Assembly (NCBI GenBank): GCA_024697065.1
Contig: JAILGE010000031.1
Span: 62,001-126,000 of the forward strand
Length of the DNA: 64,000 bases
DNA from: Lachnospiraceae bacterium
GTDB lineage: Bacteria > Bacillota > Clostridia > Lachnospirales > Lachnospiraceae
Direction: 5' to 3'
Shown here: positions 7,750 through 12,981 of the stretch, piece after piece
How positions within the stretch are numbered: the stretch's first letter is position 1
Layout of the letters: each line of letters begins with the position of its first letter
Notes under the pieces: model-generated
Databases searched by the model: none
What the model saw: the letters and a program-made list of their open reading frames with translations, nothing else
Told to the model about the DNA's origin: nothing
Position numbers and translations under genes: made by a program

Positions 7750-9450
7750 TTATGATTTTCTGATCAACTCGATGAAGTCTTCTTCGCTGAGTGGCTTTGA
7801 AAAATAGTAACCCTGCAGTTCATCGCATTCAACCGACTTCAGATAACTGAGCTGATCTTTGGTCTCCACACCTTCGGCAATGACTGTCATTCCCAATGCC
7901 TTGGCGAGAGTTGACATGTGCTTGACTATGATGGATGCTTTGTTGGAAGAACCGAGTTCCGCAACAAAATTCATATCTATCTTAACAACGTCTATGGGCA
8001 TATCCTTAAGCACCCTGAGAGAGGAATAGCCTGTTCCGAAATCATCCATTACTATGGTAAAGCCAAGATCTTTCAGCTTTTCAACGGCAGATACAAGCCT
8101 TGTCTGATCGGCAGTACGGGCGCTTTCTGTGATCTCCAGCTTAAGACAATTCCGTTCCAGCCCGTATTTGTCCAAGAGAGAGACTATATCATCTCCGAGA
8201 GACGGGAGGAAGAGATTGACCCTGGATACATTAACGCTTATGGGAACCGGCTCCAGCCCTTCATCTTTGACTCTCTTTAAGAAAGCGCAAACGAGCTCCC
8301 ATACGTGATGATCAAGCTTTGCTATCATGCCGTTACGTTCGAAAAGAGGTATAAAGGAATCCGGCATAAGCATTCCGCGTTTGGAATGATCCCAGCGTAC
8401 CAGTGCTTCGGCGGTGACAACCTTGCCGGTGTGGATATCGTAAATAGGCTGGATATGGATGCAGAATTCGTTATTGTTAAGAGCTGCTTCCATATCACTG
8501 GTAAGTGCCTGTTCCTTAAGCATTGTATCTTTGACCAGACCGTTGTATTTTGCAAAACGGTCAAGGTAATTCCCTTTTATCTGCTGGATCGCAAGACCGG
8601 CTCTGTCCAGCATGAGCTCTATGGAAGTGTCGGGCTCGTTCATGCAGTAGACAGCACTGTATATGGAAGCATTGAATCCGGGAAGCGACTTGGATATGAG
8701 GAGTTCGAGATCCTTAACGATCTTTTCCGCATCCAGTTTGTTGGTAGGCATACATACCGTAAATATATCTGCTCCGAGTCGTCCGCAGATGCCGTCTTTT
8801 CCCACAAGGACTTTTAATCTGTCAGCGATAAGCTTCAGTATAGCAAGGGATTTCTCGGCACCGAAAAGTTCGTTGATGGCTTTGAAATGATTTACGTCAA
8901 AACGAAGGAGCGTATATTCGGTATCTTTATTTTTACGAAGCTCATCGGCGTAATGACAGAATCCCTGCTCGGAGTAGACTCCGGTGAGGGTATCGGTTTC
9001 AGCAAGATGATGGAGCTTTTCCAGAGTCCTTTTTTCTGCCTCTGTATTGATCATCTGCTGCTCCAGTTCCGTTGTGGTTATGACATTGTTTACACGATGC
9101 CTTACTATCTCCACATTGTAGGGCTTGGAAATGAAATCGGAGGCACCTTTTGAAAGTGCTTTTAATTCATTCTCTTCCTGGCCGAACTGTGTATTGATGA
9201 CAACAGGGATATTTTTAAGAGCAGGATCGGAATTGAGCATGTCCAAAAGTTCAAAACCGTCCATATTCGGCATATTTAGATCGAGGATTATAACAGAGAA
9301 ATTCTTCTGTTTAAGAAGCGCGCTTGCTTCAAGACCGTCTGAAGCCTCGGTGACTTCGTAGTCTTTTTCAAAAATAGAATGAAGAATGGCACGGTTAGTC
9401 TTGCTGTCATCGACGATGAGCATGAGTTTCTTTCCGTCGGAACCGTTCAT
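7750..9450 (-). CDS. response regulator with degenerate GGDEF and EAL c-di-GMP phosphodiesterase domains
   Basis: Order: receiver domain (about 8-125, phospho-acceptor D57 in ILDLNMP), a GGDEF-like domain (150-300) whose signature reads RLGADIF and so has probably lost cyclase activity, and an EAL domain (315-560). The EAL domain keeps EALVRW (E348), DDFGTGYSS and IAEGVET, which is what an active c-di-GMP phosphodiesterase needs. The protein should lower c-di-GMP in response to a histidine kinase; no partner kinase lies beside it. The start follows GGGGGG by six bases and an extended -10 box at 9506-9514. A c-di-GMP riboswitch lies 1.5 kb away. Confidence 0.88.
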   Translation of the reverse strand: MNGSDGKKLMLIVDDSKTNRAILHSIFEKDYEVTEASDGLEASALLKQKNFSVIILDLNMPNMDGFELLDMLNSDPALKNIPVVINTQFGQEENELKALSKGASDFISKPYNVEIVRHRVNNVITTTELEQQMINTEAEKRTLEKLHHLAETDTLTGVYSEQGFCHYADELRKNKDTEYTLLRFDVNHFKAINELFGAEKSLAILKLIADRLKVLVGKDGICGRLGADIFTVCMPTNKLDAEKIVKDLELLISKSLPGFNASIYSAVYCMNEPDTSIELMLDRAGLAIQQIKGNYLDRFAKYNGLVKDTMLKEQALTSDMEAALNNNEFCIHIQPIYDIHTGKVVTAEALVRWDHSKRGMLMPDSFIPLFERNGMIAKLDHHVWELVCAFLKRVKDEGLEPVPISVNVSRVNLFLPSLGDDIVSLLDKYGLERNCLKLEITESARTADQTRLVSAVEKLKDLGFTIVMDDFGTGYSSLRVLKDMPIDVVKIDMNFVAELGSSNKASIIVKHMSTLAKALGMTVIAEGVETKDQLSYLKSVECDELQGYYFSKPLSEEDFIELIRKS

Positions 9451-10791: not shown

Positions 10792-10819
10792 TCAATTTAT
10801 TAAGGGTTTTCACGATCTG

Positions 10820-10855
10820 CCGCTATATTCCTAAATGGGATATAGCGGTTTTTTT
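10820..10855 (+). terminator. intrinsic terminator after rpsR
   Basis: A 12-bp stem (CCGCTATATTCC / GGGATATAGCGG, one G-T pair, loop TAAAT) followed by seven T residues. Confidence 0.92.
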
Positions 10856-10944
10856 GATGGTTTGATCTTCTATAGCTTGACTGTGAATTTATGAATTATT
10901 TAGGTTACTTCTTAATTTTATTATTCTTGGTATATGATATGATA

Positions 10945-11035
10945 AATCGTATTTATCGGCAAAACTGTCTAAAGGCAGTGACGCAAAGCTTATGAGCCTA
11001 CGGATATACTTTACGTCTATGATAGTCAGACTGCA
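10945..11035 (+). promoter_or_regulatory. c-di-GMP-I (GEMM-I) riboswitch
   Basis: The aptamer hallmarks are in order: GGCAAAAC, a short helix ACTGTC-TAAA-GGCAGT (10965-10979), the signature GACGCAAAGC (10980-10989), then AGCCTACGG, a helix ATATAC/GTCTAT and the closing TATGATAGTC. This is the Clostridia form of the GEMM-I aptamer, which binds c-di-GMP. It lies between the rpsR terminator and a secreted-protein gene starting at 11119. The exact 5' end of the first helix is uncertain. Confidence 0.85.
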
Positions 11036-11057
11036 GAAAACAAATGCGTTTCTGCAG
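11031..11057 (+). promoter_or_regulatory. expression-platform hairpin of the riboswitch
   Basis: CTGCAGAAA and TTTCTGCAG pair perfectly over nine bases with a nine-base loop, followed by CTATTTTAT. Its left arm overlaps the 3' edge of the aptamer. ACTGC at 11030-11034 can also pair with GCAGT at 10975-10979 inside the aptamer, so exclusive folds are possible. The T tract is weak, so on/off polarity cannot be read. Confidence 0.55.
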
Positions 11058-11118
11058 CTATTTTATATCCTGCTTAAGATGCAACTTGCGTTTACTACGA
11101 ACGGGGAAGGGAATAGGA

Positions 11119-11505
11119 ATGAAATTCAGAAGAAAAATTCAAGAGATTATAACAGGAGTGTTGCTTATTTCTGTACTAGCTGGACAAATCAGCGAGATTA
11201 AGGTATTTGCTGCAGAAAATGAGGGAAGTTTGTCGGATAATTCAGCAGAAGAGAGTGTGTCAGCGGATAGCTTTGATTCGGAGAATATTGCTGATACTTA
11301 TGAATATAGTACTATAAGTACGTTAATTGATCAAATGTCGGAAAGAAGCGTTGAAATAAACATGATTTCTGTGTCCTATGAAAGCAATAGTATTATGAAT
11401 AAATTAGTTATAAATAACGGCGGAACGGTATTTGATGAAACGCAGGGGCTTGAATATGTTAAGGAGCAAATCAGTGAAGATTTAAAGAAACGACTTGATA
11501 ATTAA
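11119..11505 (+). CDS. small secreted protein under c-di-GMP riboswitch control
   Basis: A 128-residue protein beginning MKFRRKIQEIITG followed by a hydrophobic stretch and VFAAENEG, a standard signal peptide with likely cleavage after VFA. The mature part is acidic, Ser-rich at first (about 38-60) and then helical with no recognised domain and no cysteine. The start at 11119 follows GGGGAAGGG. It lies 84 bases downstream of the c-di-GMP aptamer and is followed 17 bases later by another unknown gene. The DNA here is clearly AT-richer than the flanking ribosomal genes. Candidates such as a surface or matrix component are guesses. Confidence 0.7.
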   Translation: MKFRRKIQEIITGVLLISVLAGQISEIKVFAAENEGSLSDNSAEESVSADSFDSENIADTYEYSTISTLIDQMSERSVEINMISVSYESNSIMNKLVINNGGTVFDETQGLEYVKEQISEDLKKRLDN

Positions 11506-11522
11506 CAGTAAAGGAAATTGAT

Positions 11523-12290
11523 ATGACGCAGGAAAAAAAAGAAAAGAAGCCACGTATATTTTTGATTTTTATACTTATTGCACTGACATGCATCGCGCTA
11601 TATTTTACGGTAAGTATTATTATTAAACGGGTAATTCTCTATAGTGATTGCTCAAAAATAGAGGAATATAGGACTCATGAGATAGTTAAAAATGCTGAGG
11701 ATTATGATTTCGATGTAAGTAAACTTATATTTATGATGGATGTTTCTTTTTATGGAAAGGAAGAAAATTACCATTTGTATATATTTGAAGATGGAAAAAT
11801 ATTTACAGGGGACATACAAACAAGAAATCATCTTTGGGAACATAATCAGGCTCTTGAAAAATTAAACGCTGATGTGGTGATAAAAAATGTGGATATGACC
11901 TATTTTGGAACTATGTCGGGAAAAGAACTATACAAGATAAAGAGCCTAATGGGTGAAATTGATTTTTCAGCTGATTCATATGATTATATTATTGAATATT
12001 ATCGTAAATATGAGGGTGTAGAAGACCCACGGAATCCTTCGGATTTTAAAACATTTGAGGTTGATCCGTGGATAAATGCAGAGTGTTATGAAAATGGAGC
12101 AGTAAACCATTTTTATACTCAAGCGGCTGACGGTATAAGATATTATCTTTACGATAGGCATGCAAATAGAATGATTAATTATATTGAAGACTCATGGTAC
12201 TTTGATCAGTGGATGTCAGACATTTACGGAGATGACTGGAGAAGAGAAGTGACAATATACATATCAGAGGAAGATATTGTATTACCATAA
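11523..12290 (+). CDS. membrane-anchored protein of unknown function
   Basis: A 255-residue protein with a short Lys-rich cytoplasmic start, one membrane segment (about 11-34), and a 220-residue extracytoplasmic part rich in Tyr, Asp and Glu. No enzyme or binding motif is recognised and cysteine is almost absent (one just after the membrane segment, one near residue 187). The gene is AT-rich like its neighbour and 17 bases downstream of it, so both probably share the riboswitch-controlled transcript, which ends at the terminator near 12342. The two proteins may act together at the cell surface; this is inference from the operon only. Confidence 0.7.
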   Translation: MTQEKKEKKPRIFLIFILIALTCIALYFTVSIIIKRVILYSDCSKIEEYRTHEIVKNAEDYDFDVSKLIFMMDVSFYGKEENYHLYIFEDGKIFTGDIQTRNHLWEHNQALEKLNADVVIKNVDMTYFGTMSGKELYKIKSLMGEIDFSADSYDYIIEYYRKYEGVEDPRNPSDFKTFEVDPWINAECYENGAVNHFYTQAADGIRYYLYDRHANRMINYIEDSWYFDQWMSDIYGDDWRREVTIYISEEDIVLP

Positions 12291-12341
12291 GGATAGAAGA
12301 ATTTGCTTGACTATTAGCTTATCAGTACAATTGAATTTGCG

Positions 12342-12372
12342 GCAGAGGGTTTAATTCCTCTGCTGCTTTTTT
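12342..12372 (+). terminator. intrinsic terminator of the riboswitch cassette
   Basis: A 7-bp stem GCAGAGG / CCTCTGC with an eight-base loop, followed by TGCTTTTTT. Confidence 0.75.
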
Positions 12373-12430
12373 GTCGTATGCAAACTTAAAGTATAAGTAC
12401 GGGGATCGACATTTTTGGTGTAGAGGATAT

Positions 12431-12560
12431 TAGCGGCAGGCAGGGGACAGCGTCTTATAGCCGCAGAGCAAACCACCGGCCAAACCGGTGGTAATGATAT
12501 GCCTTTTAGTGCCGGCTCGGAACCCGGATTAGGAATCTGGTTTAGAAAGCAGAGGCGGAA
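12431..12560. other. non-coding stretch with four successive hairpins
   Basis: No gene is seen between 12373 and 12562. Four short inverted repeats follow one another: GCGGC/GCCGC (12433-12464), ACCACCGG/CCGGTGGT with a 5-base loop (12472-12492), AACCCGGATT/AATCTGGTTT (imperfect, 12521-12543) and GCGGAA/TTCCGC (about 12553-12572, reaching the end of the next gene). The density is unusual; it could be a small RNA or a remnant of a mobile element end. Confidence 0.4.
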
Positions 12561-12562
12561 AG

Positions 12563-12841
12563 TCAGTTCCGCTTCATATTGGCAACATCCTCTTCGCCCT
12601 GAACTCTAACAAGCAGGCTGTCGCAGTACGGACATACCCGCAGAGATTCCGTGTTCGGTGCCGTACAGTTGGGGCACACAGCTAATACAACCTCGGGCTT
12701 GGGGGCATTGCGGATCTTGGCGATCTCCTTTTCTTTGTTTATCTCGATGGCAGAAGAGACTGCTCCCGATACTGCTGAACTTACTGCAGAACCGACCGCA
12801 TCAGATACGGCTTCTCCTATTATTTTTCCTATAAAACCCAT
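12563..12841 (-). CDS. small zinc-ribbon protein with an Ala/Val/Ser-repeat helix
   Basis: A 92-residue protein. Residues 1-35 form a low-complexity segment with repeated AV-S and GA spacing (GKIIGEAVSDAVGSAVSSAV...) that would be a small-residue-faced helix. This is followed by a charged linker and a zinc ribbon CPNC...CPYC near residues 58-75. The start at 12841 has GGAGG six bases upstream; the ATG at 12862 lacks one. It is the only minus-strand gene between the rpsR and dnaB clusters. Function unknown; the helix suggests self-association or membrane contact. Confidence 0.7.
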   Translation of the reverse strand: MGFIGKIIGEAVSDAVGSAVSSAVSGAVSSAIEINKEKEIAKIRNAPKPEVVLAVCPNCTAPNTESLRVCPYCDSLLVRVQGEEDVANMKRN

Positions 12842-12981
12842 ATCGATCCTCCGTGGGTACATGATACACCAATAACGGCTGTTCCTTCAACTTGATATAT
12901 TACTTTGAATTCACAAAGCAAAAGAGCTTTTTCAAAAGTTATGGCGCTGTTACGGGCATGGGATATGCCGCTTTGTTTTGG

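What the first reader, a model, noticed from the sequence alone, without database searches (positions are those of the whole stretch)
10945..12372. c-di-GMP riboswitch cassette inserted into a conserved ribosomal/replication cluster
Directly visible: an aptamer with GACGCAAAGC and flanking GEMM-I elements, a platform hairpin, a signal-peptide protein and a membrane-anchored protein, then a terminator. The piece is AT-richer than its flanks and splits the common order rpsF-ssb-rpsR / gdpP-rplI-dnaB. Neither protein has a domain I recognise. It is self-contained (own terminator on each side), so it may be a transferable c-di-GMP output module controlling an unknown surface function.
Basis: partly seen in the sequence, partly recalled or inferred. 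Interest (0 to 1): 0.72.

Follow-up and report, generated by a model that had tools for sequence, protein, structure and literature searches.

The report
Riboswitch operon with gutted protease gene
A real c-di-GMP-sensing RNA switch sits in front of what is left of a large secreted protease gene and an intact gene for its likely membrane-anchored partner, inserted where related gut bacteria have nothing; the switch is of a known kind, and the gene pair is the interesting part.

Summary
A class-I c-di-GMP (GEMM-I) aptamer lies at 10948-11038 (51.4 bits, cut-off 35) before two small genes, inside a ~2.1-kb insert between rpsR and gdpP. The closest relative held (Lachnospiraceae XPB1003) has an empty site there. 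The interpretation needs correcting. The first gene is not an unknown small protein: it is the two ends of a ~1,360-residue secreted protein (signal peptide, 3 CBM2, subtilase, VWA) whose middle, ~1,240 residues, is gone in frame. XPB1003 has the whole gene, also behind a GEMM-I leader and followed by a homologue of the second gene, at another site. The second gene (255 aa, one membrane helix) belongs to a fast-evolving family of which several members lie directly behind such subtilases. The leader's terminator shares its 5' arm with the aptamer, so c-di-GMP should switch the operon ON (inferred). An IS200/IS605-type remnant lies directly downstream. Best reading: a decayed, relocated copy of a c-di-GMP-controlled secreted-protease/membrane-partner operon, the partner gene intact. 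What the partner does (tether/assembly, or self-protection) is inferred only. Novelty lies in the gene pair, not in the switch.

The parts
10856..12957 (.). insert absent from the closest relative
   Evidence: flanks align to L082 (G027) up to ~10855 and again from 12958
10819..10849 (+). rpsR terminator hairpin (flank; a hairpin also stands at the empty site)
10835..10843 (+). 9-bp direct repeat ATGGGATAT, left copy (inside the terminator)
12958..12966 (+). 9-bp direct repeat ATGGGATAT, right copy
10948..11038 (+). class-I c-di-GMP riboswitch aptamer (GEMM-I)
   Evidence: RF01051, 51.4 bits
10948..10954 (+). P1 helix, 5' strand (CGUAUUU)
   Evidence: complementary to 11042-11048; appears in the fold of the leader without the terminator's 3' arm; inferred
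11042..11048 (+). P1 helix, 3' strand (AAAUGCG), in the loop of the terminator
   Evidence: as above
11031..11057 (+). expression-platform terminator hairpin, 5' arm overlapping the aptamer's 3' end, tail CTATTTTATA
11119..11505 (+). ORF1 (P0001, 128 aa): internally deleted remnant of a secreted CBM2-subtilase-VWA protein
11119..11286 (+). part of ORF1 matching residues 1-56 of the full-length homologue (45% identity)
11299..11499 (+). part of ORF1 matching residues 1296-1362 of the full-length homologue (66% identity), the end of its VWA-like domain
11523..12290 (+). ORF2 (P0002, 255 aa): single-pass membrane protein, likely companion of the secreted subtilase
12339..12366 (+). operon terminator
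12378..12431 (+). fragment of an IS200/IS605-type tnpA (Y1 transposase) gene
   Evidence: 85% to L139 12-65, a stretch that matches PF01797
12430..12498 (+). end of the same IS with its hairpin (ACCACCGG/CCGGTGGT)
   Evidence: 88-91% to copies in G027 and G025
12563..12862 (-). zinc-ribbon-like 99-aa ORF (by eye), inside the insert but probably not part of the operon

Best explanation
The segment is a relocated and partly decayed copy of an operon that lies whole in Lachnospiraceae XPB1003: a GEMM-I leader, a ~1,360-aa secreted protein (signal peptide, three CBM2 domains, subtilase, C-terminal VWA), and a membrane-anchored partner. Shown: the aptamer, a leader homologous to the one in XPB1003, the homology of both ends of ORF1 to one long protein, the intact partner gene, and the empty site. 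Inferred: at low c-di-GMP the hairpin 11031-11057 forms and ends transcription. C-di-GMP bound to the aptamer stabilises P1 and holds the ligand-pairing C (about 11034), which is also part of the terminator's 5' arm, so transcription runs on (ON switch). Inferred: the in-frame deletion removed all catalytic and carbohydrate-binding parts, so today the switch mainly drives the partner P0002. In the whole system P0002-type proteins would bind the subtilase outside the membrane, as a tether or assembly factor or as an inhibitor that protects the producer.
For: RF01051 at 51.4 bits. XPB1003 (G027:C35) has GEMM-I at L032 6070-6161 (54.6 bits), then the 1363-aa ORF with Pfam CBM_2 (three stretches, 1.2e-36) and Peptidase_S8 (1.8e-35), then a P0002 homologue at 55%. 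The two leaders are 85% identical over 113 bp; the aptamer is 89% identical to G027:C35 (74 of 83) and 93% to G027:C16 (79 of 85). ORF1 matches residues 1-56 (45%) and 1296-1362 (66%) of that one protein. No match in the window's genome covers the subtilase part: its 4 matches are C41 (residues 235-497), the two ORF1 pieces and C38 (1162-1361). The C-terminal domain looks like VWA by fold: 42 Foldseek hits at E <= 0.001, led by Sec23/COPII chains and followed by VWF A1, CLCA1 VWA and integrin I domains (E 1e-4 to 2.4e-4, TM-score about 0.4-0.5), from a low-confidence model (pLDDT 43, pTM 0.51). Of 11 P0003-like subtilase loci with room downstream, 10 have a small membrane or lipoprotein gene (by eye) directly behind, 3 of the 10 in tandem copies; in 5 of these 10 it matches P0002 by sequence or profile (G027:C35; L152-L155), and the profile of nine such proteins matches P0002's at 98.1%, E 9.5e-14. 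ON logic: the terminator overlaps the aptamer; unliganded fold -28.2 kcal/mol with the terminator against -20.5 with P1 forced. P1 is complementary with different letters in the window (CGUAUUU/AAAUGCG) and in XPB1003 (ACUAAU/AUUAGU). The pilM riboswitch works this way, with the ligand-pairing C sequestered by the terminator (PMC9262584, passages). dN/dS 0.14-0.22 for ORF1's ends and for P0002 against homologues.
Against: The window terminator's U tract (CTATTTTATA) is weaker than XPB1003's, so switching may be leaky or lost. Class-I c-di-GMP riboswitches tested in C. difficile were OFF switches (PMC6200980, passages), and in this genus 28 of 43 leaders have a separate, non-overlapping terminator, against 6 overlapping. 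dS is near saturation (1.2-2.0), so the dN/dS values cannot show selection after the deletion. Companions in L162, L163 and L164 gave no significant profile match to P0002, L161 only 24.6%, and the L166 pair none directly; one locus of 11 (L165) has no such companion. The AlphaFold model of P0002 was poor (pLDDT 42.6), so its fold is unknown. Its partner role rests on gene order only.
Confidence: 0.75

Rival explanations
1. ORF1 is a real, selected miniature protein: a signal peptide with a short acidic linker and a VWA tail that works with P0002 as a small two-protein surface module under c-di-GMP control.
For: The junction keeps the reading frame with no stop; dN/dS of both ends is 0.14-0.21; ORF2 follows closely (17 nt between stop and start).
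Against: The tail lacks the first strand with the DxSxS motif (motif read by eye on P0003) and much of the domain. In one search, 6 of 98 genomes matched ORF1; no other match is a short signal-peptide-plus-tail ORF (the others lie in frames of 838-1934 aa, apart from a 35-aa fragment in G027:C15). In-frame fusion has a one-in-three chance. dS is near saturation, so dN/dS reflects mostly time before the deletion.
Confidence: 0.15
2. P0002 is a self-protection (immunity-like) protein. It outlives the deleted protease as an orphan, as immunity genes do, and the riboswitch now drives an orphan protector.
For: Tandem copies behind subtilases: three in G015:C12, two in G015:C23, two in G010:C93. Three copies in G011:C115 with no subtilase on that 6-kb contig. 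Two copies in the window's genome without a matching subtilase. Fast divergence (21-31% between groups by BLASTP). Recombination inside the gene. G027:C15 keeps a 32-residue VWA tail (81%) in front of an intact P0002 homologue behind a different secreted protein.
Against: No interaction or toxicity data. G011:C115 is cut by contig ends. PrcB, a lipoprotein partner of the subtilisin-family PrtP of dentilisin, is required for PrtP expression (PMC8167434, passages), so the same kind of operon fits an assembly role. The window genome's second copy has lost its proper start, which does not suggest strong need.
Confidence: 0.35
3. The insert is a dead relic: neither gene nor switch works any more.
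For: Weak U tract; deleted ORF1; IS remnant; the sister copy at G000:C2 has lost its aptamer and its proper start.
Against: The aptamer scores well above cut-off, P0002 is a full-length open frame aligned over its length to its homologues, and purine-rich, ribosome-binding-site-like runs precede both ORFs (read by eye).
Confidence: 0.2
4. The leader is an OFF switch.
For: Class-I riboswitches tested in C. difficile are OFF switches (PMC6200980, passages).
Against: The terminator's 5' arm overlaps the aptamer's 3' end here, so bound aptamer and terminator exclude each other.
Confidence: 0.12

Closest known systems
Class-I c-di-GMP riboswitch (GEMM-I, RF01051)
   Same: Aptamer sequence and structure reach the curated cut-off over the full model.
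   Different: Nothing in the aptamer; the controlled gene pair did not turn up in the paper searches made.
pilM (Geobacter metallireducens) GEMM-I ON riboswitch
   Same: Terminator and ligand-binding aptamer are mutually exclusive, the ligand-pairing C lying in the terminator (PMC9262584, passages; here).
   Different: pilM senses cGAMP. The window has G at the position that is A in cGAMP-preferring relatives (recalled, from no call), and controls another gene.
ZmpI secreted protease behind a class-I c-di-GMP riboswitch in C. difficile
   Same: A protease gene under a class-I c-di-GMP riboswitch (PMC6200980, passages).
   Different: Zinc metalloprotease, lowered by c-di-GMP; no paired membrane partner known to me (recalled).
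Dentilisin (PrcB-PrcA-PrtP) of Treponema denticola
   Same: Subtilisin-family surface protease with anchored partner lipoproteins from the same operon (PMC8167434, passages); P0003 matches the PrtP model weakly (67.5 bits, cut-off 300).
   Different: Different organism and gene order (prcB-prcA-prtP); far below the PrtP cut-off; partner sequences were not compared.
Polymorphic effector/immunity systems (recalled kind)
   Same: Shared N-terminal part (signal peptide, CBM2), exchanged C-terminal parts, small downstream membrane genes in tandem and orphan copies.
   Different: No known toxin domain found, no test of toxicity or protection.

Membership tests
Class-I c-di-GMP riboswitch (RF01051) | Covariance-model score above the gathering score | tested here: met
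   51.4 against 35 bits, full length
Class-I c-di-GMP riboswitch (RF01051) | P1 helix closing the aptamer | tested here: inconclusive
   7-bp P1 possible (10948-10954/11042-11048) and a different 6-bp P1 in XPB1003; the G027:C16 leader shows only a weak P1 by eye
Class-I c-di-GMP riboswitch (RF01051) | Binding of c-di-GMP rather than cGAMP | not testable with these tools
   The discriminating base is G in the window (position recalled); needs in-line probing or ITC
ON-type transcriptional GEMM-I switch | Terminator that excludes the bound aptamer (anatomy) | tested here: met
   5' arm of the terminator starts 8 nt before the end of the aptamer match
ON-type transcriptional GEMM-I switch | More read-through with ligand | not testable with these tools
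   needs in-vitro transcription
Secreted S8 subtilase with CBM2 and VWA | Peptidase_S8 domain present in the window gene | tested here: not met
   ORF1 has only the ends; no match to the subtilase part in the window's genome
P0002-type companion family | Profile similarity to companions behind subtilases | tested here: met
   98.1% probability, E 9.5e-14 against a profile of 9 proteins, of which 6 (L152-L155) lie behind a subtilase
P0002-type companion family | Intact subtilase gene directly upstream | tested here: not met
   Upstream gene is the deletion remnant
Dentilisin-like protease/partner complex | Physical association of partner and protease | not testable with these tools
   No structure of useful confidence
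IS200/IS605 transposon carrying the cassette as passenger | Element ends on both sides of the cassette | tested here: inconclusive
   A tnpA fragment and one end at 12378-12498; no match on the left side to the IS copies compared, but the left end of the same IS was not available for comparison
Polymorphic effector/immunity system | Effector harms kin and partner protects | not testable with these tools
   Only gene order and sequence pattern

The most novel reading that the evidence does not exclude
The window holds an orphan from an undescribed polymorphic secreted system of Lachnospiraceae: large proteins with a common signal-peptide/CBM2 front and exchangeable rear parts (subtilase-VWA, TSP3-lectin with a C39-like end, others), each followed by a membrane-anchored partner matched to its rear part, often in tandem and orphan copies. 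It would be an effector/protector system, and in one lineage a whole unit has come under direct c-di-GMP control through a GEMM-I ON riboswitch, linking attachment to fibre with attack on neighbours or on proteins at the surface.
Probability: 0.2. Interest if true: 0.62.

Novelty: new member of a known kind. Interest (0 to 1): 0.36.

Why it matters
It gives an origin to two proteins that the domain libraries searched do not recognise, and points to a secreted CBM2-subtilase-VWA protein with its membrane partner as an output of c-di-GMP in a Lachnospiraceae. Small membrane-anchored genes stand directly behind 10 of 11 such subtilases with room to look, which makes a testable question: do these partners assemble, tether or restrain secreted subtilases? 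The pair of genomes, one with the whole operon and an empty site here, one with the deleted copy and an empty site there, is a clean natural comparison.

Tried and rejected
A self-contained transposable unit: not proven. The right side has an IS200/IS605-type remnant, but no IS match was found on the left, and the left end of that same IS was not available to compare. The 9-bp direct repeat ATGGGATAT lies in the rpsR terminator, and the right flank resembles the empty site's terminator half too, so it may be target duplication or terminator recombination.

A cassette present in all relatives: rejected. Of the 35 genus genomes, 34 had an RpsR match and 30 loci were fetched; 4 of these (L089, L090, L091, L105) gave no RpsR by the script's motif and were dropped; 0 of the remaining 25 that are not the window's own carry the cassette in the stretch seen (at most 1.5 kb).

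A phage or plasmid gene: no match to P0002 in the plasmids or phages collections at E 0.001.

VWA by sequence: Pfam and the PDB sequence search gave nothing relevant for the C-terminal domain or its relatives; only the fold search supports it, from a low-confidence model.

Structure of P0002: pLDDT 42.6, not used for a fold search.

A promoter before the aptamer: the scan gave none on the + strand between 10860 and 10948; an extended -10 pattern at 10935-10943 occurs in the window as often as chance (4 against 4.1).

Literature: c-di-GMP riboswitch with Lachnospiraceae (1 paper), GEMM-I with riboswitch and subtilisin (1 paper), XPB1003 (1 paper), subtilase/CBM2/rumen/Butyrivibrio with at least three terms (39 papers, 10 listed, none of the 10 holding 'subtilase'), orphan immunity with polymorphic toxin and subtilisin (0 papers): no title or abstract listed concerns this gene pair. 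Two more searches served the riboswitch comparison (12 of 19 listed; 15 of 17 listed) and one dentilisin (6 of 10 listed). Only passages of three papers were read.

Full report
What is there. The window lies in a 2.69-Mb, 44-contig genome (G000; window = C44:62001-126000). The covariance model RF01051 finds a full-length class-I c-di-GMP aptamer at 10948-11038 (+), 51.4 bits against a cut-off of 35. The genome has four such matches. Behind this one lie ORF1 (11119-11505, 128 aa) and ORF2 (11523-12290, 255 aa), then a terminator at 12339-12366. The cassette (10930-12372) has 0.338 GC, its flanks 0.446 and 0.468; the homologous genes in G027 are AT-rich as well (0.376 and 0.324). Pfam, PHROGs and NCBIfam name neither protein.

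Insertion. Between rpsR and gdpP the closest relative held (G027; RpsR 96% identical) has 129 bp and no extra gene. Its sequence aligns with the window up to about 10855 and again from 12958, so about 2.1 kb is extra. Of 35 genus genomes 34 had an RpsR match and 30 loci were fetched; 26 could be parsed; of the 25 that are not the window's own, 10 have gdpP (by eye) directly behind rpsR at 41-237 bp, 15 have other genes, and none has this cassette in the stretch seen, at most 1.5 kb. That scan of one genome for each of 84,980 species confirmed only these two XPB1003 loci as relatives of P0002 (it reads short conserved peptides, and may leave out the window's own genome and miss distant forms).

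ORF1 is a remnant. In XPB1003 (G027:C35) a 1363-aa protein has three CBM2 stretches and a subtilase domain. Its C-terminal 223 residues look like a VWA domain by Foldseek (from a model of pLDDT 43; Pfam did not see it). ORF1 matches residues 1-56 of it at 45% and residues 1296-1362 at 66% (alignments). The middle ~1,240 residues are missing in frame, and no match elsewhere in the window's genome covers the subtilase. So ORF1 keeps the signal peptide and the last part of the VWA domain. The XPB1003 gene also has a GEMM-I leader (54.6 bits), 85% identical to the window's over 113 bp, and it too is followed by a P0002 homologue (55%). At that XPB1003 site the window's genome has a different gene, CPBP-like by eye, and no cassette. 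So each genome has the unit at one site where the other lacks it.

More copies, more decay. Beside feoB the window's genome has a second P0002 paralogue (59%). It keeps the leader terminator and a scrap of the large gene's start, but has lost the aptamer and its own proper start. The same place in XPB1003 has an intact homologue, a 32-residue VWA tail, two other small membrane genes and a different large secreted protein. From inside this paralogue onward the two genomes are about 99% identical for 2.5 kb (100-bp windows 96-100%), against 79-90% in the longer orthologous stretches compared. Its first 80 codons resemble the other XPB1003 copy (dS 0.37), the rest the local one (dS 0.02): recent exchange with a breakpoint inside the gene.

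The companion family. P0002 matched 9 of 98 relatives at E <= 0.01. Several of the weak matches turned out to lie directly behind P0003-like subtilases (G010:C56, G015:C12, C23 and C73); others (G011:C115, G018:C102, G018:C105, G022:C20) show no subtilase in the stretch read, and those in G014 and G062 were not followed. Of 15 subtilase loci examined (G027:C35 and 14 of the 18 loci), 4 are cut by contig ends. Of the 11 with room, 10 have a small membrane or lipoprotein gene (by eye; about 245-340 aa as called) next on the same strand, three of the 10 in two or three tandem copies; one (L165) does not. Three further subtilase matches were left out of this count (G025:C9 and G006:C50, partial; G015:C109, not fetched). 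In 5 of the 10 the companion matches P0002 by sequence or profile (L032, L152-L155), and a profile of nine such proteins matches P0002's at 98.1%, E 9.5e-14. The G010:C93 pair aligns to that group (93%) but not to P0002. L161 is weak (24.6%); L162, L163 and L164 are not significant. Four large CBM2 proteins without a subtilase match are also followed by small membrane proteins of other kinds. The large proteins share the CBM2 part and differ behind it.

The switch. In the unliganded fold the terminator wins (-28.2 against -20.5 kcal/mol with P1 forced). The terminator 11031-11057 begins 8 nt before the end of the aptamer match, and its 5' arm holds the C that should pair with the ligand (about 11034; mapped from recalled Vc2 numbering). 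P1 can form in both genomes with different letters. This is the ON arrangement described for pilM (PMC9262584, passages read). Of the 45 genus leaders, 43 were scanned with loops up to 12 nt: 6 overlap like this, 28 have a separate terminator and 9 gave none; two (G019:C32, first; G005:C180) were not scanned. At least two of the 'none' group (G000:C23b, G027:C24b) look like overlap types with longer loops by eye. The U tract in the window is weaker than in XPB1003. In C. difficile the class-I switches tested were OFF switches, one of them before a protease gene (PMC6200980, passages), so ON is inferred from anatomy alone. Across the genus at least 17 of 35 genomes have RF01051 (only part of the first-look candidates was scored in most genomes). 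Of 39 leaders put through a reading of downstream ORFs, 11 are followed by a prepilin-like gene (by eye); four of the 39 could not be read (three at contig ends, one mislocated by the script). Control of surface functions by GEMM-I is therefore ordinary here.

IS remnant. Window 12378-12498 is collinear with two pieces of an IS200/IS605-type element in XPB1003: the end of a Y1 transposase gene and the element's end with its hairpin. The Y1 transposase family PF01797 found no match in the window's genome. Another XPB1003 GEMM-I leader (C16), 93% identical in the aptamer to the window's, is followed by what reads by eye as the start of such a transposase gene. These elements lie near the leaders, but no result shows that they moved them.

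Verdict. The riboswitch and the insertion are real. The module is a decayed copy of a c-di-GMP-controlled secreted-protease operon with an intact membrane-partner gene. The switch is a new member of a known kind. The protease/partner pair and its swapped relatives are the part worth following.

Noticed in passing
window 7750-9450 (-); G001:C63, G005:C180, G006:C41, G009:C84, G017:C123, G021:C205, G031:C2, G032:C319: In 8 of 35 genus genomes a GEMM-I aptamer lies within about 1.4 kb of rpsR, pointing away from it on the rpsF side, in 6 of the 8 before a prepilin-like gene (by eye); in the window that side has a gene that reads as response-regulator/GGDEF/EAL. C-di-GMP genes seem to gather beside rpsF-ssb-rpsR.
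   Followed up: partly
L031 11200-13700 (G000:C2) and L033 (G027:C15): A 2.5-kb stretch with the P0002 paralogue's rear and part of feoB is about 99% identical between two species that are 79-90% identical in other longer stretches compared: recent exchange.
   Followed up: partly
L032, L033, L036, L127, L128, L129, L130: A modular set of large secreted proteins (CBM2, TSP3, C-type lectin, VWA-like, subtilase, weak C39-like ends), each followed by small membrane or lipoproteins that differ with the rear part.
   Followed up: partly
L035 560-6504 (G000:C43): Three large proteins that read as membrane GGDEF/EAL type, two on the minus and one on the plus strand, stand next to a GEMM-I aptamer that precedes a transglutaminase-like secreted protein (by eye).
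   Followed up: no
window 12563-12862 (-): Zinc-ribbon-like 99-aa ORF inside the insert, with DNA relatives (72-73%) elsewhere in G003 and G034.
   Followed up: no
G027:C16:135256-135347: GEMM-I leader very like the window's, followed by a possible IS200/IS605 transposase start and the contig end.
   Followed up: partly
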